A stretch of 64,000 bases of DNA, from NCBI RefSeq assembly GCF_000377745.1, contig NZ_KB898706.1, forward strand, positions 1,015,955-1,079,954. Direction: 5' to 3'. The notes below the pieces were generated by a model. It had not been told where the DNA came from. It did no database searches and saw only the letters and a program-made list of their open reading frames with translations. Source of the DNA: Gilvimarinus chinensis DSM 19667. Its GTDB lineage: Bacteria > Pseudomonadota > Gammaproteobacteria > Pseudomonadales > Cellvibrionaceae. Below are positions 144 to 36,090 of the stretch, in pieces; position 1 is the stretch's first letter, and each line of letters opens with the position of its first letter. The translations under genes were made by a program, and so were the position numbers.

Positions 144-1022
144 TTATTTGGCAAAGGGATTGGCCACCTGATGGTAATTTATGAGTCTCACCTCGTTTGA
201 CTCAAACCACTGTTTCGCTTCTTCGGAGAGCAGCATGTGTAGCTCTGTGGCTCGGTGCTGAGCCACTAACGGCTCCAGATCGTCAGTGTTCATTACGGGA
301 TTGTTGAGGTCTATTAAGGCCTGCATCTCCGGTTGATTGCGGGCGGCATGAATGACCAGAACATTGACTTTGTCGCTTTCCAACCCATTTTCCAGGTGCT
401 TAAAAAAGCGCTCTTGTTTTTCCGCTACAGGCACATCAAACATCGTCATGACCGCTTCGCCCATCCGCATAGACATGCGCAACTGATACTTTTCGGCCAG
501 CTCGGTGACCACCTGCGTTAATTCTGGCGTGGCCAGTGCGGTTCTCATGTGGTAATCCACATAGGCGATGTTTAAACCTGTGGCGAGGGCGCGTTTTATC
601 TGCGCTTCCAGTTCCAAACGAACTTCATCAAGGTTGACGTTCTGCGCCAAAAATTCAGCGGTGGAGGGGTAAAAATAGCCGGTTTCGTTTATCAGGCTTG
701 AGACTTCGGTGCGCCCAGCAATCGGCCCCCAGCGATAGTGACGCCACTCGGCATTTAGGGTCAGGTGGACACCGACTGAAATTTGCGGGTTTTGTTTGAG
801 GATCTCAACGCCCTCCTGATACCAGGGGGTGGTAAACATAACCGACGCGGCAAAGGGTATCCCCAAATCGGCCAGATCTTGTAAGCCCTGGTTAGTGGCG
901 TGAGTCATACCAATATCGTCGACTCGCAAAATCAGCTGTTTCGGGGCGGCGAGGCTGGCCTGGGCCACGGTTAGCAGCCATAGGCATGACAATAAGGCGA
1001 TGGTTAGTCGTAATCGAGACAT
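144..1022 (-). CDS. Secreted ChbG/YdjC-family carbohydrate deacetylase
   Basis: ChbG/YdjC proteins are metal-dependent deacetylases; ChbG removes an acetyl group from chitooligosaccharides. The start used is the ATG at 1022, giving 292 residues, because CAGGAG lies just upstream and the N-terminus is then a clear signal peptide (about 25 residues ending ASLA). A longer frame to 1082 lacks these features. Visible motifs are VDDIGMTH near residues 34-41 (metal-binding Asp pair), VGVHLTLN and YVDYHMR, all typical of the family's metal/active site. Unlike cytoplasmic ChbG, this copy is exported. It is divergent from a chitin-type LPMO, which supports a role on acetylated amino-sugar oligomers. 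The exact substrate is inferred. Confidence 0.8.
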   Translation of the reverse strand: MSRLRLTIALLSCLWLLTVAQASLAAPKQLILRVDDIGMTHATNQGLQDLADLGIPFAASVMFTTPWYQEGVEILKQNPQISVGVHLTLNAEWRHYRWGPIAGRTEVSSLINETGYFYPSTAEFLAQNVNLDEVRLELEAQIKRALATGLNIAYVDYHMRTALATPELTQVVTELAEKYQLRMSMRMGEAVMTMFDVPVAEKQERFFKHLENGLESDKVNVLVIHAARNQPEMQALIDLNNPVMNTDDLEPLVAQHRATELHMLLSEEAKQWFESNEVRLINYHQVANPFAK

Positions 1023-1060
1023 AATTATTCTCCTGTTTTTATCTATCATTAAGCCTTGGT

Positions 1061-1072
1061 ACAACGTTGTCA
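1061..1072. promoter_or_regulatory. Candidate NagR/LacI-type operator upstream of the deacetylase
   Basis: ACAACGTTGT at 1061-1070 is a perfect 10-bp palindrome, followed by CA so that the right half reads TTGTCA. It lies 39 bases upstream of the deacetylase start. The same core, extended to AGACAACGTTGTCT, recurs upstream of the LPMO. The core resembles the LacI-family NagR operator consensus as I recall it (GACARCGYTGTC). The left half here is degenerate (TACAA instead of GACAA). The regulator is not in this window. Confidence 0.45.
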
Positions 1073-1104
1073 GATTGACCAAAAGTAATGGCCGGTGTTC
1101 AGTG

Positions 1105-3207: not shown

Positions 3208-3337
3208 CGTGTAATGCCGATATTAATTTTATTGAACTAAATTGTTTTTTTGGTAATCTTTATCGCTGCGATTGCTTCGCGGCGCAATCGCCTAAAAATA
3301 AATGTACGGAGAGCAAGTCAATTCACAAGGAGTCAGT

Positions 3338-4192
3338 ATGACAAAACTTCCCTTTTTCTTGGTTTTACCTTTATCTGGCCTGGCAGCTTTCGCCGAGGCT
3401 CAAAATGCATCAAACAACAGCTATCAATTTGAGTTCGGTGCAACTTATTCCACCAGTGATGCGGATTTTATTACGAAGTCTAATAACTACTCTGTGGACG
3501 GAACCTACTACTTTGCGCCTGTGCAACTAAAAGATAACCCTTACGCTGAAGCGGCGTTTATGGAGCGCGCCGGGTTTGTCAGCTTGGGTGGAGGCTACGG
3601 TGAGAATGAAACCAAGACTGCCTGTGTGAGCGCTGCAAGTGGGACAGGCAGAACTTCATGCAGAACGGGTCAGGAAGGCTCCAGCGCTGGTGTGACGACC
3701 GGCTTTTATGTTGCGGATATTTTCTATTTTGAGGGCAGCTATTCGTATAGCGATAACGAGAATAAGTACAACGGAAGGACCTTTAGTTCGAATAATGACT
3801 ACTGGTCTGCGGCTATTGGTATTGCGCCCATGGAAAATATGCTGTTGACCACCAGTTTTGCCGAGGGTAATGATTTGTTCGGCGATAACTATAACATCAG
3901 TGGTAAGTACGTTATTCCCTTTACATCCGGACAGGCGCTTAACCTTGAAGCAAGCTACGCCTATTATAAAGATGCGCCGGACATAGCCGATGATGACGAC
4001 TGGATTGTAGGCGGCGATTATTATTTCAGTCGAGCTTTTAGCGTCGGTGGTACGTTTAACTCAAGTGACAATTATACCCTGCGTTCACGTTATTTTTTCA
4101 ATCAGGCGTTGAGTCTTGATGTTGAATACAGTGAGCAAAGGGATTTTCTGGATATTGATACCTACTCTGTTGGGCTCAGCGCTCGCTTCTAA
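3338..4192 (+). CDS. Outer-membrane beta-barrel (putative porin) paralogue 1
   Basis: This 284-residue protein has a signal peptide (MTKLPFFLVLPLSGLAAFAEAQ) and alternating aromatic/polar strands throughout. It ends in SVGLSARF, with the terminal Phe of BAM-assembled barrels. The start is ATG 3338 with AAGGAGT upstream. It shares a fold with the proteins at 4358-5176 and 12883-13767. All three have YYF(A/T)PV-like turns followed by PYAEAAFMERA, a W(S)A.IGI.P central strand and a D(D)W..GGDYY strand near the C-terminus. Likely a small porin or channel of unknown substrate; I do not recognise a named family. Cys pairs near residues 102 and 111 could form a loop disulfide. Confidence 0.72.
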   Translation: MTKLPFFLVLPLSGLAAFAEAQNASNNSYQFEFGATYSTSDADFITKSNNYSVDGTYYFAPVQLKDNPYAEAAFMERAGFVSLGGGYGENETKTACVSAASGTGRTSCRTGQEGSSAGVTTGFYVADIFYFEGSYSYSDNENKYNGRTFSSNNDYWSAAIGIAPMENMLLTTSFAEGNDLFGDNYNISGKYVIPFTSGQALNLEASYAYYKDAPDIADDDDWIVGGDYYFSRAFSVGGTFNSSDNYTLRSRYFFNQALSLDVEYSEQRDFLDIDTYSVGLSARF

Positions 4193-4357: not shown

Positions 4358-5176
4358 ATGCAAAAACTACCTCTCGTAGTACTTCTTTCGTTTACATCCG
4401 TTCCGGTGTGGGCGGATTTAAGAATGATAAACGCCAACAGTCAGTACCAATTTGAACTCTCTGGTTGGTACGGCGAAGATAACGACCTTTATCCCGAGCC
4501 CGCGCAAACTTACGGTGTTAAAGGAACCTATTACTTTACCCCGGTTTGGCAATCTGACCACCCCTATGCCGAAGCCGCGTTTTTAGAGCGTGCAAGCTCG
4601 GTGAGCTTAAGTGCGAGGCGCTGGGATGATTCGGACCAATATCCCTGCGGGCTGGATGCAACCGGCCTTTGTCATAACGAGTATCTGGAAGATAAAATTC
4701 TGCTGACCGGAAGCTGGTACTCGGCGGGCTGGCTATTTGTTGAGACCACGTATTTTTATGAGCAAACCGATAACCGTTGGCGCGATGATCGCGAAGCGAG
4801 TTTTGATCGCAACAGTTGGAGTGCTCAGATCGGGATTACACCGCTTGCCGGACTTCGGGTTTCGACCGGTTATTCCGAAGAAAATGATCTGGGGGAAAAT
4901 GACTGGAATGTCGAGGCTAAATACGTTGCGTCTTTATCGGATACCCAGGCGATCAATGTTGAGCTTGCTTATGAGTATGCCGAGGACGATGAATGGATGC
5001 TGGCAGGGGACTATTATCTCACCCAGGCATTCAGCATTGGCGGCGGGCTTGCGACCAACGACGATTATCTGTGGCGCTCCCGCTATTTTGTGACTGATTT
5101 TATCAGTGTGGATGTCAGCTATTACGAATACGAAGATGGCGATGCCTATCAGGTAAGGGTATCTACTCGGTTTTAG
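4358..5176 (+). CDS. Outer-membrane beta-barrel (putative porin) paralogue 2
   Basis: A 272-residue secreted barrel whose signal peptide is MQKLPLVVLLSFTSVPVWA. The conserved core is YYFTPVWQSDHPYAEAAFLE, followed by NSWSAQIGITPLAGL and EWMLAGDYYLTQAF. It ends in QVRVSTRF, a barrel-assembly C-terminus. It lies 165 bases after paralogue 1 and is separated from it by a terminator, so the two are probably independent transcription units that arose by tandem duplication and have since diverged. A Cys pair in PCGLDATGLC corresponds to the extracellular loop Cys pair of paralogue 1. The substrate is unknown. Confidence 0.72.
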   Translation: MQKLPLVVLLSFTSVPVWADLRMINANSQYQFELSGWYGEDNDLYPEPAQTYGVKGTYYFTPVWQSDHPYAEAAFLERASSVSLSARRWDDSDQYPCGLDATGLCHNEYLEDKILLTGSWYSAGWLFVETTYFYEQTDNRWRDDREASFDRNSWSAQIGITPLAGLRVSTGYSEENDLGENDWNVEAKYVASLSDTQAINVELAYEYAEDDEWMLAGDYYLTQAFSIGGGLATNDDYLWRSRYFVTDFISVDVSYYEYEDGDAYQVRVSTRF

Positions 5177-5268: not shown

Positions 5269-6182
5269 TAGTAAGGCTTGCTGGCCTTGGTGGTCACATA
5301 ACTTGTGTCGAAGCTGACAATGCTGTCCTGAAGAAAACATAACATACGCCTCTCCACCCCCGCTTTCATTACCCTCTCTGAGCGCAAAGGCTCGAGAGTA
5401 GTGGAGAGATGATACTTTTGTTACCTGGTGTACTTGGCTCTAAAGATAGATGTCGAGTTGATTGGGAATAGGTGTATAGCGCGAACATTAGAGCTGATTA
5501 AGTTTGGTTAAGTAGCGTCAATTATCCTCAGTGTGCTTAATGGTCCTATGGACAATATGAGTATTGCTAATGATAATGGAGTGAGGGTGGAGCGAGCGTG
5601 AAATGTTAACGGTGTTACCTGGCCTGGTTCTCCAATCACGAAAAGTGCACGGTTTGATAATAATAGCAATTTTGCCCAAAGCTTGTGACTTTAGCGGTGC
5701 AGCCCTTGTACCAGCTTAAGTTCCTACACTTAGTTTTTTTCATAAATGGTTGACCAGTGTGGTCGTAGGGCGTCCTCATGCCAGTGGTTGTAACGAGTTA
5801 TATCACTTTGCTAACACTTGGGTTTTGGATGTTGGTTTTAGATGAAGGCCGAATTGCCACCGTTACATTGGCTGATTTACCGGGCCGCTTGGGTTTCAAA
5901 TAATCGCCCGGGTTTCAAATAATCGTCCGGGTTTCACATAATAAAGTAACAGCAATTGAGCAAACATACGCCGTATCGTGAGTGAGTATCGGAGCCTAGT
6001 TCGGCATCGTATCGTCAGTACTTGTTTTTGTTTTGGATCTATCGGGGCGATCACCCTCGATACAAAATAGATTTACGTTGAAAGCCTTTTGGGTGAGTCA
6101 ATGGAAGGTGATAGGCGAGCTGACAAGACAGTGTTGACTGAAAATATCACTCCGTGCGTGTAAAAGTTTAGGAGACCAGAGC
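5269..6182. other. About 0.9 kb without a recognisable gene upstream of the GH5 operon
   Basis: No coding frame with protein-like composition and a ribosome-binding site is seen on either strand. Contents include an imperfect hairpin with CTCTCCAC (5351-5358) and GTGGAGAG (5401-5408) as outer arms, a GACA-ATGC-TGTC motif at 5316-5327, and three copies of a 19-bp tandem repeat at 5891-5947. It may be a long control region, a decayed gene, or hold an unrecognised RNA. It ends in AGGAGACC, the ribosome-binding site of the next gene. Confidence 0.5.
5891..5947. repeat. Three tandem copies of a 19-bp repeat
   Basis: The unit GGGTTTCAAATAATCGCCC occurs at 5891-5909 and, with one change, at 5910-5928. 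A degenerate third copy (GGGTTTCACATAATAAAGT) is at 5929-5947. The spacing is close to two helical turns, so repeated protein binding upstream of the GH5 gene is possible. Confidence 0.8.
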
Positions 6183-7451
6183 ATGAAAGTTATTCAGCTG
6201 GCACTGTTGGGTTTGCTGACATGTGCCGCAACGGTTTTAGCGCAAGAGACCATTTATGTAGACGATGGCAAGATTAAAACCGCTTCAGGAGAGATTCTTG
6301 TTATGCGCGGCTTTAATGAGATGTTTGTCTGGTCAACCGATCCAACCGGTGAACGATTGATTCCCGAGATTGCTCAGTCGGGCGCAAATACCTTACGCCT
6401 AGTGTGGAGTTATAAAAACGCAAACACAGACGATCTTGAAAGTCTCGTCAATCGCACCGTAGAGCACAAGATGGTACCGGTAGTTGAATGCCATGATGCG
6501 ACGGGTAAATGGGGGGAAGAGTTACAAAAGTGTGTTGATTTTTGGAAAGACCCAGTGGTTTTTGAGACGATTGAAAGCCAGAAACGATGGGCGATTCTTA
6601 ACATTGCAAACGAGGCCGGTGCCCATGATATTAATGACCAGGAGTTTGTGAAAACGTATAAAAAAGCAATCTCCGAACTACGACAGCGGGGTTATACCGT
6701 TCCTATTATGGTAGATGCCGCCGTCTGGGGGCAGGATATTTCACAGTTGATCCGTACCGCGCCGCAACTGATCGAGCATGATCCCTTGCACAATATTATT
6801 TTCTCGGCGCATTCCTATTGGCCGCAAGAGCAAGCACTGGAAAATTATCGCCTTGCCGCCGCTAGCGCCAGCCAGCACTCCATTGCCTTAATTATTGGGG
6901 AGGGTCCATCCGTGACCCGTGTGGGCCAATGTGAGAACCCCAAACCTTTGCCTTATTTGGAGGGAATGGAGATTCTGCAGAATGCGGATATTGGTTGGTT
7001 GAATTGGTCCTGGGGTGGAATGAAAAATGGCGATTGCGATCAATACCTCTATTTCGACATTTCTGAGCAGGGGCGATTTGGTCGTTGGACCCACGAGCCA
7101 GGTGCTCAAATAGTAGCAATGAGTCCAAACAGCGTGATGCAAACCTCCAAGCGTCCCGCCTCATTTTACCCGGACGGAAAAGTTGATGTGTCCGGCGTCT
7201 ATCTACACTTAGAAAACGCCACTGTCGAAGTTGGTGAAACCGCCCGCTATACCGCTTTAATCGCACCAGTGAATGCCCATAACAAAAATTATTCTGTCGT
7301 GTGGAGTGGGGATGAAGAAACTTTACTCATAAATTCCCGCGACGGCACTGTTACCGGGAAACGTCCAGGTCAGGGAGAGCTTATTCTGACGAGCGAGATG
7401 GGGAATCTGAGCTGGTCTGTTCCCGTTACAGTGATCAAGTCACAGCATTAG
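6183..7451 (+). CDS. Secreted GH5-like glycoside hydrolase with C-terminal Ig-like (BIG2) domain
   Basis: A 422-residue exported protein (signal peptide to about residue 20, ...TVLA/QETI). The TIM-barrel part (about 24-315) has GH5 landmarks: MRGFNEMF, ANTLRLVW, VVECHDATG, the acid/base Glu144 in NIANEAG, the HSYW strand, the nucleophile Glu240 in IIGEGPS and GWLNWSWGG. The HDATG and WSW segments resemble bacterial beta-mannanases (GH5_8-like). NEAG replaces the usual NEP, so the subfamily is uncertain. Residues about 338-418 form a bacterial Ig-like domain. The start is ATG 6183 after AGGAGACC. It is first in an operon, 13 bases before the nucleoside-hydrolase-like gene. Substrate is inferred to be a plant or algal beta-glycan, possibly mannan. 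Confidence 0.8.
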   Translation: MKVIQLALLGLLTCAATVLAQETIYVDDGKIKTASGEILVMRGFNEMFVWSTDPTGERLIPEIAQSGANTLRLVWSYKNANTDDLESLVNRTVEHKMVPVVECHDATGKWGEELQKCVDFWKDPVVFETIESQKRWAILNIANEAGAHDINDQEFVKTYKKAISELRQRGYTVPIMVDAAVWGQDISQLIRTAPQLIEHDPLHNIIFSAHSYWPQEQALENYRLAAASASQHSIALIIGEGPSVTRVGQCENPKPLPYLEGMEILQNADIGWLNWSWGGMKNGDCDQYLYFDISEQGRFGRWTHEPGAQIVAMSPNSVMQTSKRPASFYPDGKVDVSGVYLHLENATVEVGETARYTALIAPVNAHNKNYSVVWSGDEETLLINSRDGTVTGKRPGQGELILTSEMGNLSWSVPVTVIKSQH

Positions 7452-7464
7452 TTGGAGATACTCT

Positions 7465-8367
7465 ATGAGACCGTTGCAATACATTTCTACATTATGGTTG
7501 TTCATTGTATTGGGTATAAGTGTTAGTGCTTGGGGACGCACGGTTGTTCTCGATGCGGATACGGCTAATGAAGTGGATGACCCTTATGCAATCGTCAAGG
7601 CGTTTTCTGTGCCGGGTTGGAATATCGTCGCGTTGAATGCCGCACAGTGGCAGGCAAGCCAATGGGCCTCCCCGGATACCATGGAGCAGAGCTTTCGGAT
7701 GAACCAGGAGATGGCGGCTTATCTGGAGTTTCCATCAAGCGTAAAAGTTTTGCGCGGGGCGCATCGCAGAATCTTCGATTGGGGAGAAGATCGAGCGATA
7801 TACTCTTCCGCTAGCCACCATTTAATTGGGCTTGCGCAGCAGGCTAAAAGCAATGAACCGATTACTGTTATCGCCTTAGGGGCGCTAACCAATATCGCCT
7901 CCGCTTTACTTATTGCCCCAGAAATAGCCTCAAAGATCGAGGTCTATTGGTTGGGTACGACCTTGTCCCCTGATTCTAACCGATTAGAGTTTTTAGATTT
8001 CAACCCTCTGATGGACCCTCAAGCGGTTGATGTCTTGCTCGATTCGCAAGTGCAATTGCATATTCTTCCGGTGAGCAGTCTGGGGGCTTACCAGGCCGAT
8101 TTCACAAAAGCTAAACAACATTTTTTAGGCAAAGGCGAGCTTGGTGATTACTTGATTCGGCGCTGGAGAGAGCATGGAGATGGCGGAAAGTACCAGCGCA
8201 TACTATGGGATGTCGCTTTAATTCAGGCGGTGCAATACCCAGAGAGGTTTACGAAGAAAAAGATCTCTGCGTACCCGAATAGTAACCTGTGGGTGTATGC
8301 CGAGGTGGATAATGAGTTTTTGCTGAAAGACCTTTACCAAAGTATCGAAGATCGTCTACAAAAATAA
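7465..8367 (+). CDS. Exported nucleoside-hydrolase-fold protein
   Basis: The 300-residue protein has a signal peptide (about residues 1-24) and then the N-terminal metal-binding signature of the inosine/uridine nucleoside hydrolase fold, in the variant DADTANEVDD (residues 30-39), rather than the DTDPGxDD of classical enzymes. TVIALGALTNIASAL matches the conserved ALGPLTNxA strand. The variant motif plus export suggests a member of the nucleoside-hydrolase-like group acting on glycosides outside the cytosol, not purine/pyrimidine salvage. GGAGA precedes the ATG. It sits between the GH5-like gene and the ThuA/dehydrogenase chimera, with 13- and 26-base gaps, so co-transcription is likely. Enzymatic substrate unknown. 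Confidence 0.78.
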   Translation: MRPLQYISTLWLFIVLGISVSAWGRTVVLDADTANEVDDPYAIVKAFSVPGWNIVALNAAQWQASQWASPDTMEQSFRMNQEMAAYLEFPSSVKVLRGAHRRIFDWGEDRAIYSSASHHLIGLAQQAKSNEPITVIALGALTNIASALLIAPEIASKIEVYWLGTTLSPDSNRLEFLDFNPLMDPQAVDVLLDSQVQLHILPVSSLGAYQADFTKAKQHFLGKGELGDYLIRRWREHGDGGKYQRILWDVALIQAVQYPERFTKKKISAYPNSNLWVYAEVDNEFLLKDLYQSIEDRLQK

Positions 8368-8393
8368 ACGCGTAAATATTATAGGACAGGGCA

Positions 8394-11300
8394 ATGAAAA
8401 GAATAACGGCCACACTGCTAGCAACCTTTTTACTTTCGATTGTTGTTCAATCGAAAGCCGGTGGACTTCCCTATCTGGTATTTGAGCCTCAGGAAAAGCT
8501 GGACCGAGACAAGCACATTGTAATTGTAACCGGAGATGAAGAGTATCGCTCGGAAGAGTGGGGGCCGATGCTTGCCAAAATCTTCAGCAAAAAGCACGGT
8601 TTTAAAACCACTGTGCTGTTTGCACAGAACGATGAGGGTATTGTTGACCCGAACAACATTTACAACATTCCCGGTATGGAGCTGCTGAAGCAAGCTGACT
8701 TGATGGTGCTGGGCACGCGCTGGCGCAAGCTGCCCGAGGAGCAGATGCTGCCGGTGCTGGATTATCTCAACGCGGCCAAGCCGATTATCGCCCTGCGCAC
8801 CGCCACGCATCCGTTTAACAACGACGAAGAGTATGGCGGTTACGACTGGAAAAACTTTGGTCGCGAAATCGTGGGTGAAAACTGGTTGAACCATCACGGA
8901 GAACACAAAGTTCAGGGCGGTCGCTCGGTGGTTAATCCCGCGCAAAAGAACCATCCTCTGCTCAATGGTGTGGAGCCATTTTTCACCTACTCGGATATTT
9001 ACGGCATTGAACACCTAAACAATGTTGAAGCGGATGTGTTGTTGCGCGGTGCCGTGACCGAGTCGCTCGACCCACAGTCGCCTGCGGTAGAAGGTGAGTT
9101 GAACAGCCCGATGATGCCGCTGGCTTGGCTCAAGCCTTACCCTGCGCCCAATGGCAAAGAGGGGGTGTGCTTTGCCACTACTGCCGGTGCCGCTGTCGAT
9201 TTAGTGGATGAAAATCTGCGCCGCCTGGTCGTCAACGCCGCTTATCACTTGCTGGGTTACGATGTGCCCCAACAGGCCGATGTAACACCGATTGATCGTT
9301 TTGAACCCTCTTTTTACGGGTTTCAGGACAAAGACTATTTTGTTAAACGCGGTCTGACTATCGACGACTTTGCCTTAGGTCGTTCCGGTCGCGCTATCCT
9401 CAGCGAAGAAGACGCTCAGTGGTTAAGCAAAAGTAAGCTGGCGAGCGAGGTTGATGTTGAATTTGATAAAGACGATTCCGTTGCCATTGTCGGCAATGGT
9501 TTGGCCGAGCGGATGCTGCATTACGGCTTTTTCGAAAGTCAGCTATACGCCCGCAATGCCGGTAAGAACCTGAGCATTCACAACCTGGCGCGTCCGGGCA
9601 TGACGCCTGTGTTCCGTCCTCACCCTTCGCGCGATACTCAGTGGCTGTTCCCAGAAGCGGCAGAGCTTTACCCGGAGCTTGCCGAGCACAGTGGCGTGGG
9701 TACTCACCCAAGCCCGGATGAATGGCTGGAGAAAATCGAGGCCGACAAGATCTTTGCCTTCTTTGGTTTTAACGAGTCGTTCGATGGCCCCGAGGGCCTA
9801 GAGCGCTTTAAGAAAGAGCTGCGCGCTTACATCAAGCACACCCGCGCCCAGCGTTACAACGGCAAAAGTGCTCCTGAGTTAGTCTTGGTCTCGCCCATCG
9901 CTTTCCAGGATTTGTCCGCTGATCACGATCTGCCTAAGGGTAAAGAGCAAAACCGCAACCTTGCGCTTTACACTCAGGCCATGGCCGAAGTGGCGCAAGA
10001 AGCCGATGTGGACTTTATCGATATCTATACCCCCACACGTCGCTGGTTTGTTGAGTCGACCGAGCAGCTTACCGTTAATGGTGCGCATCTAAACCAAGAG
10101 GGTTATGAGCGTTTAGCGGCTGAGTTGGCGCAGCAGTTAATGGCCGATCAAGGTCAGACCCCGAGCGATGAGCTGGTGTCACTGGTGGTGGAGAAAAACG
10201 TCCACTGGTTTAACCATTACCAAATGCCCAATGGTGTGCATGTTGATGGTCGTCGCTTTGAGCCATACGGCCCCGACAACTATCCGGCAGAAAAGAAAAA
10301 AACCTGGCAGTTAACGCAAAACCGCCAGGCGGAAATTTGGGCGCTGGTGCAAGGTAAGCGTTTTGATAGACAAGCGGCTGATGCCAAAACCGTGACCTTG
10401 CCAGAGGTGCAAACCAATGCGCCCGAGCGTGCCGAGCAGCAGTATTTGTACGGTAGGGACGCGTTAGAGCGCTTTAGCCTGGCCCCAGGTTACGAAATTG
10501 AGTTGTTTGTATCGGAAAAAGAGTTCCCCAATATGGCGAACCCGGTACAGCTGACTTTCGATGGTAAGGGGCGCTTGTGGGTCGCGGTAATGCCGAGCTA
10601 CCCTCACTATCGCCCCGGCGACCCAGCGCCCAACGATAAAATTCTGATTTACGAAGACACCGACGGCGACGGCAAAGCCGATAAAGAAACCGTGTTTGCC
10701 GACAAGTTGCATCTGCCGATTGGTTTTGAGCTGACGCCCGAAGGTGTGTTTGTATCTCAGGCGCCAAACCTGGTGCGTCTGCGCGATACCGACAATGACG
10801 ATCGCGCCGATGTGCGCGACATTATTATGAGTGGCTTTGACACTCACGATACTCACCATGCCATCAGCGCATTTACCCGCGACCCCTGGGGTGGTTTGAT
10901 TTTCGCCGAGGGCGTGTTTTTGCACACCAATGTGGAAACCGCCTATGGCCCAGTGCGTGCGGTAAACGGTGGGTTTTATCGTTTTGAGCCGCGCAGCCAT
11001 AAACTGGAGCGCATTGTACAAACCCATATCCCCAACCCCTGGGGTGTGGCTTTCGATCGCTGGGGGCAGGGCTTTTTCTTGTCCACCTCCAACCCGGATA
11101 TGCATTGGATGCTGCCGGTTGAACTTGCCACTCATTATGGTCAGTTGACCGTGGGCACTGAATCATTGATTGAGTCTGATCATCGGGTGCGCCCGACCTC
11201 GGGTTTGATTTTTGTCTCCAGTGATCACTTCCCCAAAGAAGTGCAGGGCGACTTTATCCTCAACAACTCCATCGGCTTTTTGGGTGCCAAACAGCACCGT

Positions 11301-12494
11301 CTGAACGACGACGGCGCGGGTTACACCAGTAAGTTCGTGATGGATTTATTTAAATCCAGCGATCCGAACTTCCGTGCGGTGGATTTGGACTTCTCCCCGG
11401 ATGGTTCGCTCTATGTGGTGGATTGGCACAACCAGTTGATCGGCCACATGCAGCACAATGCTCGCGACCCGCTGCGAGATCATGCGCACGGTCGTATTTA
11501 TCGCATTACCCATAAAAAAGGTAAGTTGTCGCCGGTACCGGATCTGACCACTAAGTCGCCCGAGCAATTGCTAACCATGCTCCCCAAGGCTGACTGGCAT
11601 CAGCGTATGCGCATCTATCGCGAACTGCGCAAACTGCCGGCTCATGAAGTGGCCCAGCAACGCGCTCAGTGGCTCTTAGCGTTGCGCACTGCTGGCGAGT
11701 TGAATGAGTATCGTCAGCTTGAAGCTTTGTGGTTGGATAACCGCTCGCTGGATACCGGCCTGGTGCGCTCACTGCTTGAAGCCGATGACTTTAGAGTGCG
11801 CGCCGCCGCTGTGGAAGCGCTGCGTTATCACCGCGAGCAGTTCGACGATACCCGGGCTCTGTTGCTGCAAGCCGCCGCCGATAAGCACCCACGTGTGCGT
11901 TTGGAAGCGGTCGTAGCGTCTACCTGGTTGAACGATAAGCGCGCCTTGCAGGTGGTGCAAAAAGCGGCCGAGCAGCCCGTGGATGCCTGGGCCCGTCAGG
12001 CGTATCTGCAGGCCGCCGCTTATTGGGGGGGCAAGGTGGACTTGCCAGCGGTTGAGTCCGAAGAGCAAGAACGCGATTTGCCGCCCGAGGTAGCCGCTGT
12101 GTGGGAAGAGGGGCGTGAAATCTACCGCCGCGAAGGTTACTGCGCAACCTGTCACCAGGAAGATGGTAATGGTCTGCCGGCGGCGCAGTTCCCGCCTTTG
12201 GCTGGCACCGAGTGGGTGACAGGTAATCCCGCGCGTTTGATTGATATTGCGCTCAACGGTCTGACAGGCCCAATTGACGTTAACGGTCGTCACTACCCAG
12301 GTCATGTGCCCATGACGCAGTTTAAAGGTTTGCTCAATGATCAGGAGATGGCAGCGGTGCTGACCTATGTGCGCAACGCGTTTGGCAACAGCGCTTCAGC
12401 CATTACCCCAGAGCAGGTTGAAAAAGTGCGCGCCGAAACGGCCGACAAAACCGGCTTTTGGTTGGCGCCAGAGCTAAATCAGAAATACCCCTAG
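8394..12494 (+). CDS. 1366-residue exported chimera: ThuA + SGNH-like + PVC-type dehydrogenase + HEAT-like + cytochrome c
   Basis: A signal peptide ends near residue 22 (VVQSKA). Domains in order: ThuA-like flavodoxin-fold domain (about 30-300: HIVIVTGDEEYRSEEWGP, ALRTATHPF); SGNH-hydrolase-like domain (about 358-585: SVAIVGNGLAERM, block V NGAHLNQEGY with His565); PVC-type dehydrogenase beta-propeller (about 695-1040: GYEIELFVSEKEFPNMANP, DGDGKADKETVFAD, PNPWGVAFD, HGRIYRITHKKG); HEAT-like helices (about 1120-1220); class I cytochrome c with CATCH at 1250-1254 and a likely axial Met1307 in VPMTQF. Such fusions are common in Planctomycetes and Verrucomicrobia. The SGNH block I reads GNG, not GDS, so the catalytic Ser is absent. 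Expected role: periplasmic oxidation of a sugar or glycoside with electrons passed to the fused haem. It is last in the GH5 operon; substrate unknown. Confidence 0.85.
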   Translation: MKRITATLLATFLLSIVVQSKAGGLPYLVFEPQEKLDRDKHIVIVTGDEEYRSEEWGPMLAKIFSKKHGFKTTVLFAQNDEGIVDPNNIYNIPGMELLKQADLMVLGTRWRKLPEEQMLPVLDYLNAAKPIIALRTATHPFNNDEEYGGYDWKNFGREIVGENWLNHHGEHKVQGGRSVVNPAQKNHPLLNGVEPFFTYSDIYGIEHLNNVEADVLLRGAVTESLDPQSPAVEGELNSPMMPLAWLKPYPAPNGKEGVCFATTAGAAVDLVDENLRRLVVNAAYHLLGYDVPQQADVTPIDRFEPSFYGFQDKDYFVKRGLTIDDFALGRSGRAILSEEDAQWLSKSKLASEVDVEFDKDDSVAIVGNGLAERMLHYGFFESQLYARNAGKNLSIHNLARPGMTPVFRPHPSRDTQWLFPEAAELYPELAEHSGVGTHPSPDEWLEKIEADKIFAFFGFNESFDGPEGLERFKKELRAYIKHTRAQRYNGKSAPELVLVSPIAFQDLSADHDLPKGKEQNRNLALYTQAMAEVAQEADVDFIDIYTPTRRWFVESTEQLTVNGAHLNQEGYERLAAELAQQLMADQGQTPSDELVSLVVEKNVHWFNHYQMPNGVHVDGRRFEPYGPDNYPAEKKKTWQLTQNRQAEIWALVQGKRFDRQAADAKTVTLPEVQTNAPERAEQQYLYGRDALERFSLAPGYEIELFVSEKEFPNMANPVQLTFDGKGRLWVAVMPSYPHYRPGDPAPNDKILIYEDTDGDGKADKETVFADKLHLPIGFELTPEGVFVSQAPNLVRLRDTDNDDRADVRDIIMSGFDTHDTHHAISAFTRDPWGGLIFAEGVFLHTNVETAYGPVRAVNGGFYRFEPRSHKLERIVQTHIPNPWGVAFDRWGQGFFLSTSNPDMHWMLPVELATHYGQLTVGTESLIESDHRVRPTSGLIFVSSDHFPKEVQGDFILNNSIGFLGAKQHRLNDDGAGYTSKFVMDLFKSSDPNFRAVDLDFSPDGSLYVVDWHNQLIGHMQHNARDPLRDHAHGRIYRITHKKGKLSPVPDLTTKSPEQLLTMLPKADWHQRMRIYRELRKLPAHEVAQQRAQWLLALRTAGELNEYRQLEALWLDNRSLDTGLVRSLLEADDFRVRAAAVEALRYHREQFDDTRALLLQAAADKHPRVRLEAVVASTWLNDKRALQVVQKAAEQPVDAWARQAYLQAAAYWGGKVDLPAVESEEQERDLPPEVAAVWEEGREIYRREGYCATCHQEDGNGLPAAQFPPLAGTEWVTGNPARLIDIALNGLTGPIDVNGRHYPGHVPMTQFKGLLNDQEMAAVLTYVRNAFGNSASAITPEQVEKVRAETADKTGFWLAPELNQKYP

Positions 12495-12882: not shown

Positions 12883-13767
12883 ATGCAATCTGAAATCGTT
12901 AGAAAACCCTTAGCCCTGCTCGCGTTTATCTCTCTTCCCGCAGCCGCAGCTCCCTATCAGTGGGAAGTCGGAGGCGACTACCTAAGTAAGGATTATGATT
13001 CCGTCGTTGTTGGCGATGGAGACGACTATAAGCTGTGGGGCGCCTATTACCTGAGTCCAGTGACAACCGATAAAGGGCCGCTGGCTGAGGCGGCTTTTTT
13101 ATCCCGTGCCAGTAATGTTTCAATTGACCTGGCCAATGAGCAATACAGTTCGGATTATTATTACGAGTACCGAGTGTGTGCCTCGGGATCGAATTGCATG
13201 GCTACACAATACGGCCGTTCCATAGAGAATAATAAAGCAACGCTCGGATTTGAGTACTATTTGCCCGACTCTTGGTTGTATGTTGCGGGCAGTTATCAAT
13301 ACTTGGACCGGAGCTATGAGTCAAAAAGGTCTGTGGGCGGGGAACCTGTTTTTTCGCAATCTTCCAGTACGCATGAATACTGGTCTGCCTCTGTCGGTGT
13401 GACGCCGTTAGAGGGCTGGTTGCTGGCGGCTCAGTTTGGTGAAGGGGGCGATGGCGAATTGTTCGCGGGCGAGGCGGCGATTAGCAGTAAGTATTTATGG
13501 CAGCTTGGCGGTGATAGGGCGCTAAATGTAGAAGGAACTTATTTTGTTGATAATGGCTACAACGACTGGCAGATTGGGGCTGATTTTTACCTCAATAAAA
13601 CTCTGAGCCTTGGTGCCAGCTATGCAGATAATCAATCTTCCGAAATTCGTTTGAAAAAGTTTGTAACGGATTCAATAGCGCTGGAGGCCAGCTATATTGA
13701 GTTTGAAGAAGATTATGGTTATCAAAGTGGCGATGGGTTTTCTGTGGGTGTTAGTACGCGATTTTAA
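12883..13767 (+). CDS. Outer-membrane beta-barrel (putative porin) paralogue 3
   Basis: A 294-residue exported barrel protein with AAGGAG seven bases before its ATG and a signal peptide ending near PAAAA. It shares with the paralogues at 3338 and 4358 the YYLSPVTTDKGPLAEAAFLS segment, a loop Cys pair (CASGSNC), EYWSASVGVTPLEGW, DWQIGADFYL and the terminal VGVSTRF ending in Phe. It lies 388 bases downstream of the ThuA/dehydrogenase chimera, so the exported operon is bracketed by members of one barrel family. The barrel may be a specific uptake channel; no substrate can be read from the sequence. Confidence 0.72.
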   Translation: MQSEIVRKPLALLAFISLPAAAAPYQWEVGGDYLSKDYDSVVVGDGDDYKLWGAYYLSPVTTDKGPLAEAAFLSRASNVSIDLANEQYSSDYYYEYRVCASGSNCMATQYGRSIENNKATLGFEYYLPDSWLYVAGSYQYLDRSYESKRSVGGEPVFSQSSSTHEYWSASVGVTPLEGWLLAAQFGEGGDGELFAGEAAISSKYLWQLGGDRALNVEGTYFVDNGYNDWQIGADFYLNKTLSLGASYADNQSSEIRLKKFVTDSIALEASYIEFEEDYGYQSGDGFSVGVSTRF

Positions 13768-15235: not shown

Positions 15236-16228
15236 TCATTCGAAATCGTAGCGAAGGGGGAGCTTGGCGCGTATCTGATCCAGGACTTTCATGATGGCCA
15301 CGGATTCATCCAGTGGAATAATCGGGCTCTCGCCGAGGCCTGCACGCAAGCAGCGGGCGGCTTCTTCCACCTGATGGACAAAACCGTTTTCGGCGTTCTC
15401 GGCACCGACTGTACCGGTATGAGTGTATTCTCGGCCTTCAATCTGTTTCAGGGTGTATTCACTTTGACCCTGAAAGTTTTCATAGGCAAGGGTCCCGGCG
15501 TCGCCGTACAGTGTCATTTCCTGGCCCAGCATCAGGTTAAAGCTGGTGTTGACGGTGGCCAGTACGGGGCCTGGGAAACGCAGCTGAAAACTGGTGATCT
15601 CATCCACCCCAGTGTCGGTAAATACGCACTGGGCGCTCACCACCTCGGGCAGCTTGCCCAATGCCGCGCACAGCATGCTCACCGGGTAAATCCCCATGTC
15701 CAGGGTGACGCCACCGGCCACCGCCGGGTCGTACAGCCGACCGCGGTAGTGATCGGGCGCAATACCGCCAAAGGTCACGTGGGCGGCTTTCACCTGGCCG
15801 ATGGCGCCTTCGCTGATGTGTTCTTTCAGTGAGAGCATGCTGGGCAGAAAACGCGTCCAGATGGCTTCCATGACAAAGCATTTCGTGGCTCGCGCCTTGT
15901 CGACAATGGCTTGGGCTTCAGCGGCGTTGACGGTAAAAGGTTTTTCGATCACCAGATTCTTGCCGTGTTCTAAAGCCAGCAAGGCGTTGTCAGCGTGAAA
16001 GTTATGGGTGGTGGCGATGTAGACCACATCAATGTCATCTCGCGTTAGCAGGCTTTCATAGGTTTCGGCCGTAATGTCGTATTCAGCCGCAAAGGCGTCG
16101 GCTTTGTTGGGGGTGCGTGAGGCAACCGCTAATAATTGGTTGTCCTTGGCAAGGTTAATGGCCTCGGCCATTTTATGGGCAATAACACCGGCACCTAAAA
16201 TGCCCCAGCGGATGGTTGGATCGGTCAC
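15236..16228 (-). CDS. Gfo/Idh/MocA-family NAD(P)-dependent oxidoreductase
   Basis: A 330-residue cytosolic enzyme of the Gfo/Idh/MocA family, which oxidises or reduces sugars, polyols or related compounds with NAD(P). It starts at a GTG (16228) preceded by AGGAGAG. The Rossmann motif is WGILGAGVIAHKMA (8-21). The family Lys is in VIEKPFTVN (about residues 93-101), and GGVTLDMGIYPVSM holds the downstream D-x-G-x-Y active-site region. The sequence resembles the trans-1,2-dihydrobenzene-1,2-diol/xylose dehydrogenase subgroup, but substrate cannot be fixed. It is the gene upstream of aroA on the same strand, with about 110 bases between. Confidence 0.85.
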   Translation of the reverse strand: MTDPTIRWGILGAGVIAHKMAEAINLAKDNQLLAVASRTPNKADAFAAEYDITAETYESLLTRDDIDVVYIATTHNFHADNALLALEHGKNLVIEKPFTVNAAEAQAIVDKARATKCFVMEAIWTRFLPSMLSLKEHISEGAIGQVKAAHVTFGGIAPDHYRGRLYDPAVAGGVTLDMGIYPVSMLCAALGKLPEVVSAQCVFTDTGVDEITSFQLRFPGPVLATVNTSFNLMLGQEMTLYGDAGTLAYENFQGQSEYTLKQIEGREYTHTGTVGAENAENGFVHQVEEAARCLRAGLGESPIIPLDESVAIMKVLDQIRAKLPLRYDFE

Positions 16229-35840: not shown

Positions 35841-35868
35841 TGACAAAACCCTGGTCACGCCTTACATT
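35841..35868 (+). promoter_or_regulatory. Possible promoter of the cobalamin locus
   Basis: TTGACA at 35841-35846, a 16-base spacer and TTACAT at 35863-35868 lie just before the riboswitch. The -35 is perfect; the -10 matches at only three of six positions. Confidence 0.45.
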
Positions 35869-35879
35869 GCGCGGCGCGA

Positions 35880-36090
35880 TGTGAGGTGCCTGCTGCGCTC
35901 AAAGTTCAAACTCTTGACGCTGAGCAGGTTAAACGGGAAGTCCGGTCAATCCGGCGCTGCCCCCGCAACGGTGATCAAGCTCTGGGTGCTTTACACAAAG
36001 TTATCCTGGTTTGTCAGCCCGATACCGGCCCACATCAAATCGTGATGGAGCGGAGGGCTGCCATCAGCAAGTCTCACACCTGCCTTTGGG
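35880..36090 (+). promoter_or_regulatory. Cobalamin (B12) riboswitch
   Basis: The conserved core GCTGCCCCCGCAACGGT at 35956-35972 is the hallmark of cobalamin riboswitches. It is preceded by GGTGCCTGCTGCGC and GGGAAGTCCGG..AATCCGG, and followed by a long variable arm and GCCCGATACCGGCC (about 36018-36031). The remainder up to 36135 probably holds the expression platform, including CACACC/GGTGTG pairing near 36075-36093 and a pyrimidine-rich stretch. It should shut off the btuB-like receptor, and perhaps the whole downstream cob/btu transcript, when adenosylcobalamin is abundant. The ends are approximate. Confidence 0.9.

What the first reader, a model, noticed from the sequence alone, without database searches (positions are those of the whole stretch)
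6183..12494. Three-gene operon of exported proteins: GH5-like hydrolase, nucleoside-hydrolase-fold protein, and ThuA/SGNH/dehydrogenase/cytochrome c chimera
All three genes are on one strand with 13- and 26-base gaps, and each product has a signal peptide. The set couples glycan cleavage (GH5), possible N- or O-glycoside cleavage (nucleoside-hydrolase fold) and haem-linked sugar oxidation (PVC-type propeller with cytochrome c). ThuA and PVC-type dehydrogenases are known mainly from Planctomycetes, Verrucomicrobia and Bacteroidetes, so transfer into a gammaproteobacterium is plausible. I know of no described pathway with this combination; a periplasmic oxidative glycoside-use system is my hypothesis.
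Basis: partly seen in the sequence, partly recalled or inferred. Interest (0 to 1): 0.72.

Follow-up and report, generated by a model that had tools for sequence, protein, structure and literature searches.

The report
Verrucomicrobial haem-protein gene in Gilvimarinus operon
A marine bacterium carries a three-gene cluster built around a giant haem protein whose closest kin are in a distant bacterial phylum, and the genes found beside some of its relatives suggest, without proof, that it helps break down sugars by oxidising them.

Summary
The three genes are real: GH5 (6183-7451), nucleoside-hydrolase-fold (7465-8367) and a 1366-aa multidomain protein (8394-12494), gaps 13 and 26 bp. The host is a Gilvimarinus. 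The full trio was found in one other genome (G. gilvus), so it is not a widely conserved trio. The conserved unit is gene 3: ThuA-like / SGNH-like / DUF7133 / HEAT / cytochrome c in one ORF. Its SGNH domain lacks the catalytic serine in 25 of 25 homologues. Gene 3 is mainly verrucomicrobial; the six gammaproteobacterial copies in my tree form one clade nested there, so transfer is supported. Some contexts tie gene 3 to 3-keto-glycoside catabolism: one verrucomicrobial cluster (Gfo/Idh, isomerase-like, gene 3, 3-keto-disaccharide hydrolase, second haem protein, GMC dehydrogenase), one Alteromonadaceae cluster, and co-occurrence with a GMC dehydrogenase in Gilvimarinus (4 of 4 versus 0 of 4). 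GH5 orthologues lie near GMC dehydrogenases in two of four other genera. But 3-keto hydrolases are only 3 of 124 gene-3 neighbours elsewhere, and none adjoins the window operon. No activity is shown.

The parts
6183..7451 (+). Gene 1: GH5 enzyme with C-terminal Big_2 domain and a signal-like N-terminus; Glu144 (NIANE) and Glu240 (IIGE) at the expected acid/base and nucleophile places
   Evidence: Pfam; nearest solved structures are beta-mannanases 3jug, 2whj, 2whl (E 4.7e-32 to 7.4e-29); both Glu kept in 6 of 6 orthologues
7465..8367 (+). Gene 2: nucleoside-hydrolase-fold protein with variant motif DADTANEVDD (Asp30, 32, 38, 39) and Asp249
   Evidence: IU_nuc_hydro 3.5e-18; weak PDB hits to nucleosidases (best 1.7e-6); these Asp invariant in 4 aligned relatives
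8394..12494 (+). Gene 3: 1366-aa fusion protein
   Evidence: one ORF of over 1300 aa in each of the 25 aligned homologues
8475..9269 (+). ThuA-like N-terminal domain of gene 3 (about residues 28-292)
   Evidence: Pfam ThuA in 17 of 25 homologues, not in the window protein itself; limits set by eye
9474..10139 (+). SGNH-like domain of gene 3 (about residues 361-582), GNG in place of the Ser motif
   Evidence: GDSL_2 in 25 of 25; Gly369 in 25 of 25, block-V His in 8 of 25; limits set by eye
10458..11519 (+). DUF7133 / PVC-type domain, presumed beta-propeller (residues 689-1042)
   Evidence: propeller fold is recalled, not tested
11769..12014 (+). HEAT repeat domain (residues 1126-1207)
12105..12377 (+). 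Cytochrome c domain (residues 1238-1328); CxxCH at 1250-1254, Met1307 as likely axial ligand
   Evidence: CxxCH and Met in 25 of 25

Best explanation
The cluster is an accessory glycan-use module. Gene 1 (shown: GH5 with both catalytic glutamates) is inferred to cut a beta-linked polysaccharide, mannan-like or glucan-like, outside the cytoplasm. Gene 3 (shown: a verrucomicrobial-type fusion with a c-haem site) is inferred to take part in periplasmic oxidation of the released glycosides, probably at C3, passing electrons through its haem towards the respiratory chain; its ThuA-like domain is inferred to act on the keto-sugar and its SGNH-like domain to bind sugar without hydrolysis. The keto-glycosides would then be opened by 3-keto-disaccharide hydrolases encoded elsewhere in the genome (8 matches). 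Gene 2 keeps the aspartate cluster of its fold and may cleave a glycosyl bond, but its substrate is unknown.
For: Verrucomicrobial locus L102: Gfo/Idh/MocA, xylose-isomerase-like TIM barrel, gene 3, PF06439, second haem protein, GMC. Alteromonadaceae L056: gene 3 followed by PF06439, a haem/DUF7133 protein and a TonB receptor. Homologues of the first two (58 and 52% identical) and of the MFS and GH43 that precede gene 3 in Paraglaciecola (67 and 70%) sit in one cluster of the window's own genome (L150). GH10 adjoins gene 3 in G. agarilyticus and Paraglaciecola hydrolytica and lies 3 kb off in G. polysaccharolyticus. The four other DUF7133 genes that one search found in the window's genome each lie within 1 kb of a PF06439 gene. 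PF13618 (GMC subunit 3) is present in the 4 Gilvimarinus with gene 3 and absent from the 4 without; on a 7-species phoR tree three independent contrasts agree. GH5 orthologues lie 2-4 kb from GMC/subunit-3 genes in G031 and G019. GMC-type LacABC dehydrogenases and PF06439 proteins are reported to act together in 3-ketoglycoside use (PMC9007349, passages).
Against: Context is not general: 3 of 124 neighbours of gene 3 in 21 non-Gilvimarinus loci match PF06439; two are in L056 and L102, the third I could not place. The rest is a scatter of families (126 matched, the commonest 3 times). No 3-keto gene adjoins the window operon. The three contrasts give sign-test p 0.25. 10 of 18 Verrucomicrobiae with the full fusion lack PF13618. 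DUF7133 has no solved relative by sequence at E<=0.1, so oxidation itself is not shown. Adjacent PF06439 pairs like that of L150 also occur in Gilvimarinus without gene 3 (G001, G003, G004).
Confidence: 0.4

Rival explanations
1. Gene 3 is not itself the dehydrogenase but the cytochrome partner (LacB-like role) of the GMC dehydrogenase encoded elsewhere, with its other domains holding the substrate.
For: GMC/subunit-3 in exactly the 4 of 8 Gilvimarinus with gene 3; no ORF of 90 aa or more with CxxCH in the 19 kb fetched around that GMC in those 4 genomes; the GMC's nearest solved relatives are fructose and glucose dehydrogenase large subunits, and the gene 3 haem domain matches the cytochrome subunits of the same enzymes (8hdd_B, 7w2j_C).
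Against: The haem domain matches nitrite-reductase-fused cytochromes better (6e-27 against 6e-15 and 3e-11). G019 and G031 have such GMC genes, no gene 3 and also no nearby CxxCH ORF, so an unlinked cytochrome may be usual. 10 of 18 Verrucomicrobiae with the full fusion lack PF13618.
Confidence: 0.2
2. The three genes are a lineage-specific cluster without a common pathway: GH5 for mannan, the nucleoside-hydrolase-fold protein for nucleosides or other glycosides, and gene 3 for an unrelated verrucomicrobial function.
For: Trio known from 2 genomes; gene 2 not found in the other gene 3 genomes searched; gene 3 neighbours elsewhere are a scatter; GH5 orthologues occur in 4 genomes of other genera, of which G019, G031 and G065 had no gene 3 at E<=1e-60 (they were among its 117 genomes).
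Against: Order, strand and short gaps kept between two species with saturated synonymous divergence, all three proteins constrained; genes 1 and 3 each have relatives beside GMC-type genes.
Confidence: 0.3
3. Gene 3 is a binding/redox helper for hydrolases on a sulfated or substituted polysaccharide.
For: Sulfatases beside gene 3 in L053 and L094; GH10 or GH43 in L017, L018, L051; esterase families near it in L091 and L101 and GH92 in L088.
Against: Sulfatase in 2 of 124 neighbours; no known auxiliary-activity domain in gene 3.
Confidence: 0.1

Closest known systems
LacABC-type 3-dehydrogenase with DUF1080/PF06439 3-ketoglycoside hydrolase (Caulobacter and others; PMC9007349)
   Same: Periplasmic glycoside oxidation with PF06439 hydrolases; GMC and subunit-3 genes and PF06439 genes are in the same Gilvimarinus genomes
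   Different: None of these is in the window operon; gene 3 is a DUF7133-cytochrome fusion, not a GMC protein; GH5 and the nucleoside-hydrolase-fold gene are additional
GlycDH / O-glycoside eliminase / Gfo operon (Agrobacterium; PMC10628242)
   Same: Locus L102 holds the same kinds of protein: GMC oxidoreductase, TIM-barrel isomerase-like protein, Gfo oxidoreductase
   Different: The window has only a Gfo/Idh gene beyond aroA (15236-16228, other strand)
PVC-type haem-binding CxxCH proteins (TIGR02604)
   Same: 219.6 bits against cut-off 122.2; c-haem domain
   Different: Fused to ThuA-like and serine-less SGNH-like domains
GH5 beta-mannanases (3jug, 2whl, 1bqc)
   Same: Best solved matches; both catalytic glutamates
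   Different: GEGPS where 3jug has GEFG; Big_2 domain; 56-70% identical to its orthologues but 30-36% to the other GH5 proteins of the family

Membership tests
PVC-type haem-binding CxxCH protein (TIGR02604) | Score above the NCBIfam cut-off | tested here: met
   219.6 bits, cut-off 122.2
PVC-type haem-binding CxxCH protein (TIGR02604) | CxxCH haem site | tested here: met
   25 of 25 homologues, with Met1307 also in 25 of 25
SGNH/GDSL hydrolase | Catalytic Ser in block I (motif recalled) | tested here: not met
   Gly369 in 25 of 25
SGNH/GDSL hydrolase | Block V His (motif recalled) | tested here: inconclusive
   His in the window protein, in 8 of 25 homologues overall
ThuA | Pfam PF06283 match | tested here: inconclusive
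   17 of 25 homologues at E<=1, not the window protein
GH5 beta-mannanase | Two catalytic Glu | tested here: met
   E144 and E240 in 6 of 6 orthologues
GH5 beta-mannanase | Activity on mannan | not testable with these tools
   needs an enzyme assay
Nucleoside hydrolase | Asp cluster that binds Ca2+ (roles recalled) | tested here: inconclusive
   Asp30, 32, 38, 39, 249 in 4 of 4 relatives, with a two-residue insertion against 3t8i
3-keto-glycoside pathway cluster | PF06439 hydrolase in the same locus | tested here: not met
   None of the 8 PF06439 matches of the genome lies in the window's stretch of contig C1
3-keto-glycoside pathway cluster | C3 dehydrogenase activity | not testable with these tools
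   needs an assay

The most novel reading that the evidence does not exclude
Gene 3 is a one-polypeptide redox unit of a 3-keto-glycoside pathway: it either oxidises glycosides at C3 with its DUF7133 domain or serves as the missing cytochrome subunit of a GMC 3-dehydrogenase, with a ThuA-like domain that handles the keto-sugar and a serine-less SGNH domain as a sugar-binding module, and it has crossed from Verrucomicrobiota into marine gammaproteobacteria, where it is kept or lost together with a GMC dehydrogenase.
Probability: 0.3. Interest if true: 0.72.

Novelty: new variant of a known kind. Interest (0 to 1): 0.5.

Why it matters
Relatives of gene 3 at E<=1e-60 are in 97 of 335 Verrucomicrobiae sampled, and my paper searches (see report) listed no study of what this class of haem protein does. 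If gene 3 oxidises or helps oxidise glycosides, Gilvimarinus species with and without it, two of them as close as 98% in PhoR, offer a direct way to test the role of a large protein class in marine glycan breakdown.

Tried and rejected
Rejected: a widely conserved trio (2 genomes). Rejected: SGNH domain as an active esterase (no Ser). Rejected: recent plasmid spread of gene 3 (plasmid collection: one record, 37% covered, 36.5% identity). Considered: remnants of the G. gilvus GH3/NrtR genes upstream of the window's GH5; none (one tblastn hit at E 1.3). Considered: a chitin link through the LPMO and YdjC genes upstream; not followed.

Led nowhere: paper searches with ThuA and related terms; promoter scan; Rfam showed nothing near the operon. 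In one search, six of the eight paralogue rows were the wrong ORF (a PhoR kinase), so I use only the six orthologue rows. In one search dS of genes 1 and 2 is undefined.

Limits: the tree is the quick method and its outgroup is not one side of a branch (7 of 12 rows on the wrong side); L055 (ThuA part only) was left out of tree and alignments. The phoR trees lack G006. The neighbour tally took 124 of the 126 neighbours listed (two dropped for size), ORFs of 120-1300 aa, up to three on each side; in 1 of 3 cases I could not say which neighbour gave the PF06439 match. The count of 18 full fusions is from a capped list. The named scan used two short exact patterns, so it misses diverged copies. 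ORF calls are mechanical.
Full report
Observation. The three ORFs, strand and gaps are as described, and the domains as well, with two corrections. First, the SGNH-like domain has GNG where the catalytic Ser should be: Gly in 25 of 25 homologues, and the block-V His in 8 of 25 (motif names recalled). Second, the N-terminal domain is ThuA-like through its relatives (17 of 25 match Pfam ThuA), not by its own score. Signal peptides were judged by eye only. That DUF7133 is a beta-propeller is recalled; no solved relative was found by sequence.

Host and distribution. Gene 3 at E<=1e-60 is in 4 of 117 relatives, own genome included, all Gilvimarinus; in 1 of 369 genomes of the class sample, the window's own; and in 97 of 335 Verrucomicrobiae. 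Of these I counted 18 with the full fusion, 13 by one match over the query and 5 by two matches in one ORF, from a capped list. The named scan gave 9 loci: three Gilvimarinus, Paraglaciecola hydrolytica, Alteromonadaceae BrNp21-10, Pelagicoccus, DG1235, a Verrucomicrobiae MAG, and Planctomycetes CA13 with the ThuA part only. The nucleoside-hydrolase-fold gene is in 4 of 117 relatives (window, G. gilvus, and two at 44 and 38% identity), in 0 of 6 named non-Gilvimarinus genomes from that scan (that call warns that an empty answer without a positive control shows nothing by itself), and in 16 of 335 Verrucomicrobiae, none of them among the 18. GH5 orthologues (E<=1e-80) are in 6 of 144 genomes of the family, own included.

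Transfer. In a 37-row tree the six gammaproteobacterial proteins are one clade (99*), sister to Pelagicoccus and DG1235 and nested among Verrucomicrobiota. This supports one entry into marine gammaproteobacteria. Within Gilvimarinus the cluster lies at the same place (dcd on one side; aroA, Gfo and NUDIX on the other) in the window and G. gilvus. In G. agarilyticus and G. polysaccharolyticus gene 3 lies among other genes, with GH10 adjacent in the first and 3 kb away in the second.

Operon in G. gilvus. A GH3 gene overlaps the GH5 start by 4 bp, and a divergent gene with NUDIX and NrtR/AraR-type DNA-binding domains stands beyond it, as one would expect of a sugar-use operon. The window lacks both there, and no remnant was found.

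Context for. L102: Gfo/Idh, TIM barrel, gene 3, PF06439, haem protein, GMC. L056: gene 3, PF06439, haem/DUF7133 protein, TonB receptor. L051: MFS, GH43, GH10, gene 3. L150 in the window's genome collects homologues of these L056 and L051 partners in one cluster. One search found four other DUF7133 genes in the window's genome (and one place matching only the cytochrome part); each of the four lies within 1 kb of a PF06439 gene. A fifth (L150) was found through PF06439 and is not counted. PF13618 follows gene 3 in Gilvimarinus, 4 of 4 against 0 of 4, and the neighbouring GMC is confirmed in G002, G005, G006 by Pfam and in the window's genome by similarity and NCBIfam. A phoR tree of 7 species shows three independent contrasts, all concordant. 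In Verrucomicrobiae 43 of 97 genomes with gene 3 relatives carry PF13618 against 16 of 238 others (Fisher p 7.6e-15, not corrected for kinship or genome size); for the full fusion 8 of 18 against 51 of 317, p 0.006. GH5 orthologues in G031 and G019 lie 2-4 kb from GMC/subunit-3 genes in different gene orders; those in G065 and G828 do not. G065 has no PF13618 match; G828 was not searched for it.

Context against. Of 124 neighbours of gene 3 in 21 non-Gilvimarinus loci, PF06439 matches 3, the most of any family, level with cytochrome c. Two are in L056 and L102; the third was not placed. The other families are a scatter, some carbohydrate-related (sulfatases in L053 and L094; GH92 in L088, esterases in L091 and L101; PEP-hydrolase and UPF0261 genes in L096; epimerase and aldolase genes in L095), many not (ORF lists). 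So the link is suggestive, not general.

Mechanism. Shown: domains; the Glu pair of GH5; haem ligands of gene 3; constraint. Inferred: GH5 cuts beta-mannan or beta-glucan (nearest structures are mannanases); gene 3 oxidises or helps oxidise glycosides; PF06439 proteins finish the cleavage. The haem domain resembles the cytochrome subunits of fructose and glucose dehydrogenases, whose large subunits are the nearest solved relatives of the Gilvimarinus GMC, and no CxxCH ORF of 90 aa or more lies within the 19 kb fetched around that GMC in 4 of 4 genomes; the same holds for the GMC loci of G031 and G019, which lack gene 3. The haem domain matches nitrite-reductase cytochromes better, so this is weak.

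Literature. PMC9007349 (passages): LacABC and DUF1080/PF06439 in 3-ketolactose use. PMC10628242 (passages): C3 oxidation, elimination, Gfo reduction. PMC5673643 (passages): DUF1080 abundance in Planctomycetes. Nasseri 2024 (doi 10.1038/s41586-024-07574-y) was seen only as a reference-list entry. The ten paper searches listed no paper whose title or abstract start deals with the function of the PVC-type haem protein; some of these lists were cut at 10-30 rows, and most subscription papers are not in the library. The family-specific terms brought only 8 papers, all through the generic phrase 'heme-binding CxxCH'.

Noticed in passing
window 3302-4192, 4358-5176, 12883-13767: Three Porin_7/Omp33-36-like porins flank the operon on both sides.
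   Followed up: partly
window 144-1082 and 1377-2429: YdjC-type deacetylase and LPMO_10 with CBM5/12, a chitin-type pair about 4 kb upstream of the operon.
   Followed up: no
window 5886-5942: Three tandem copies of a 19-bp unit about 240 bp before the GH5 start; could be a regulator site.
   Followed up: no
window 35866-36047: Cobalamin riboswitch (RF00174, 50 bits) before a TonB-receptor-like ORF and a run of genes that by eye look like cobalamin genes; ordinary.
   Followed up: partly
window 15236-16228: Gfo/Idh/MocA gene beyond aroA, kept next to the operon in G. gilvus too; far below the cut-offs of the curated glycoside 3-dehydrogenase families.
   Followed up: partly
L019 7100-10229, L020 7390-9708: Relatives of gene 2 directly follow a sulfatase in both loci and, in L019, precede a cysteine-rich-domain gene that looks like LutA.
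   Followed up: partly
L150 2912-9650: Cluster in the window's genome with GH43, MFS-like, a PF06439/cytochrome/DUF7133 fusion and a PF06439 protein.
   Followed up: partly
L055 9001-10014: Planctomycetes CA13 encodes the ThuA-like part alone as a 337-aa ORF.
   Followed up: no
L096 5366-7487: PEP-hydrolase-like and UPF0261 genes directly before gene 3 in one Verrucomicrobiae genome.
   Followed up: no
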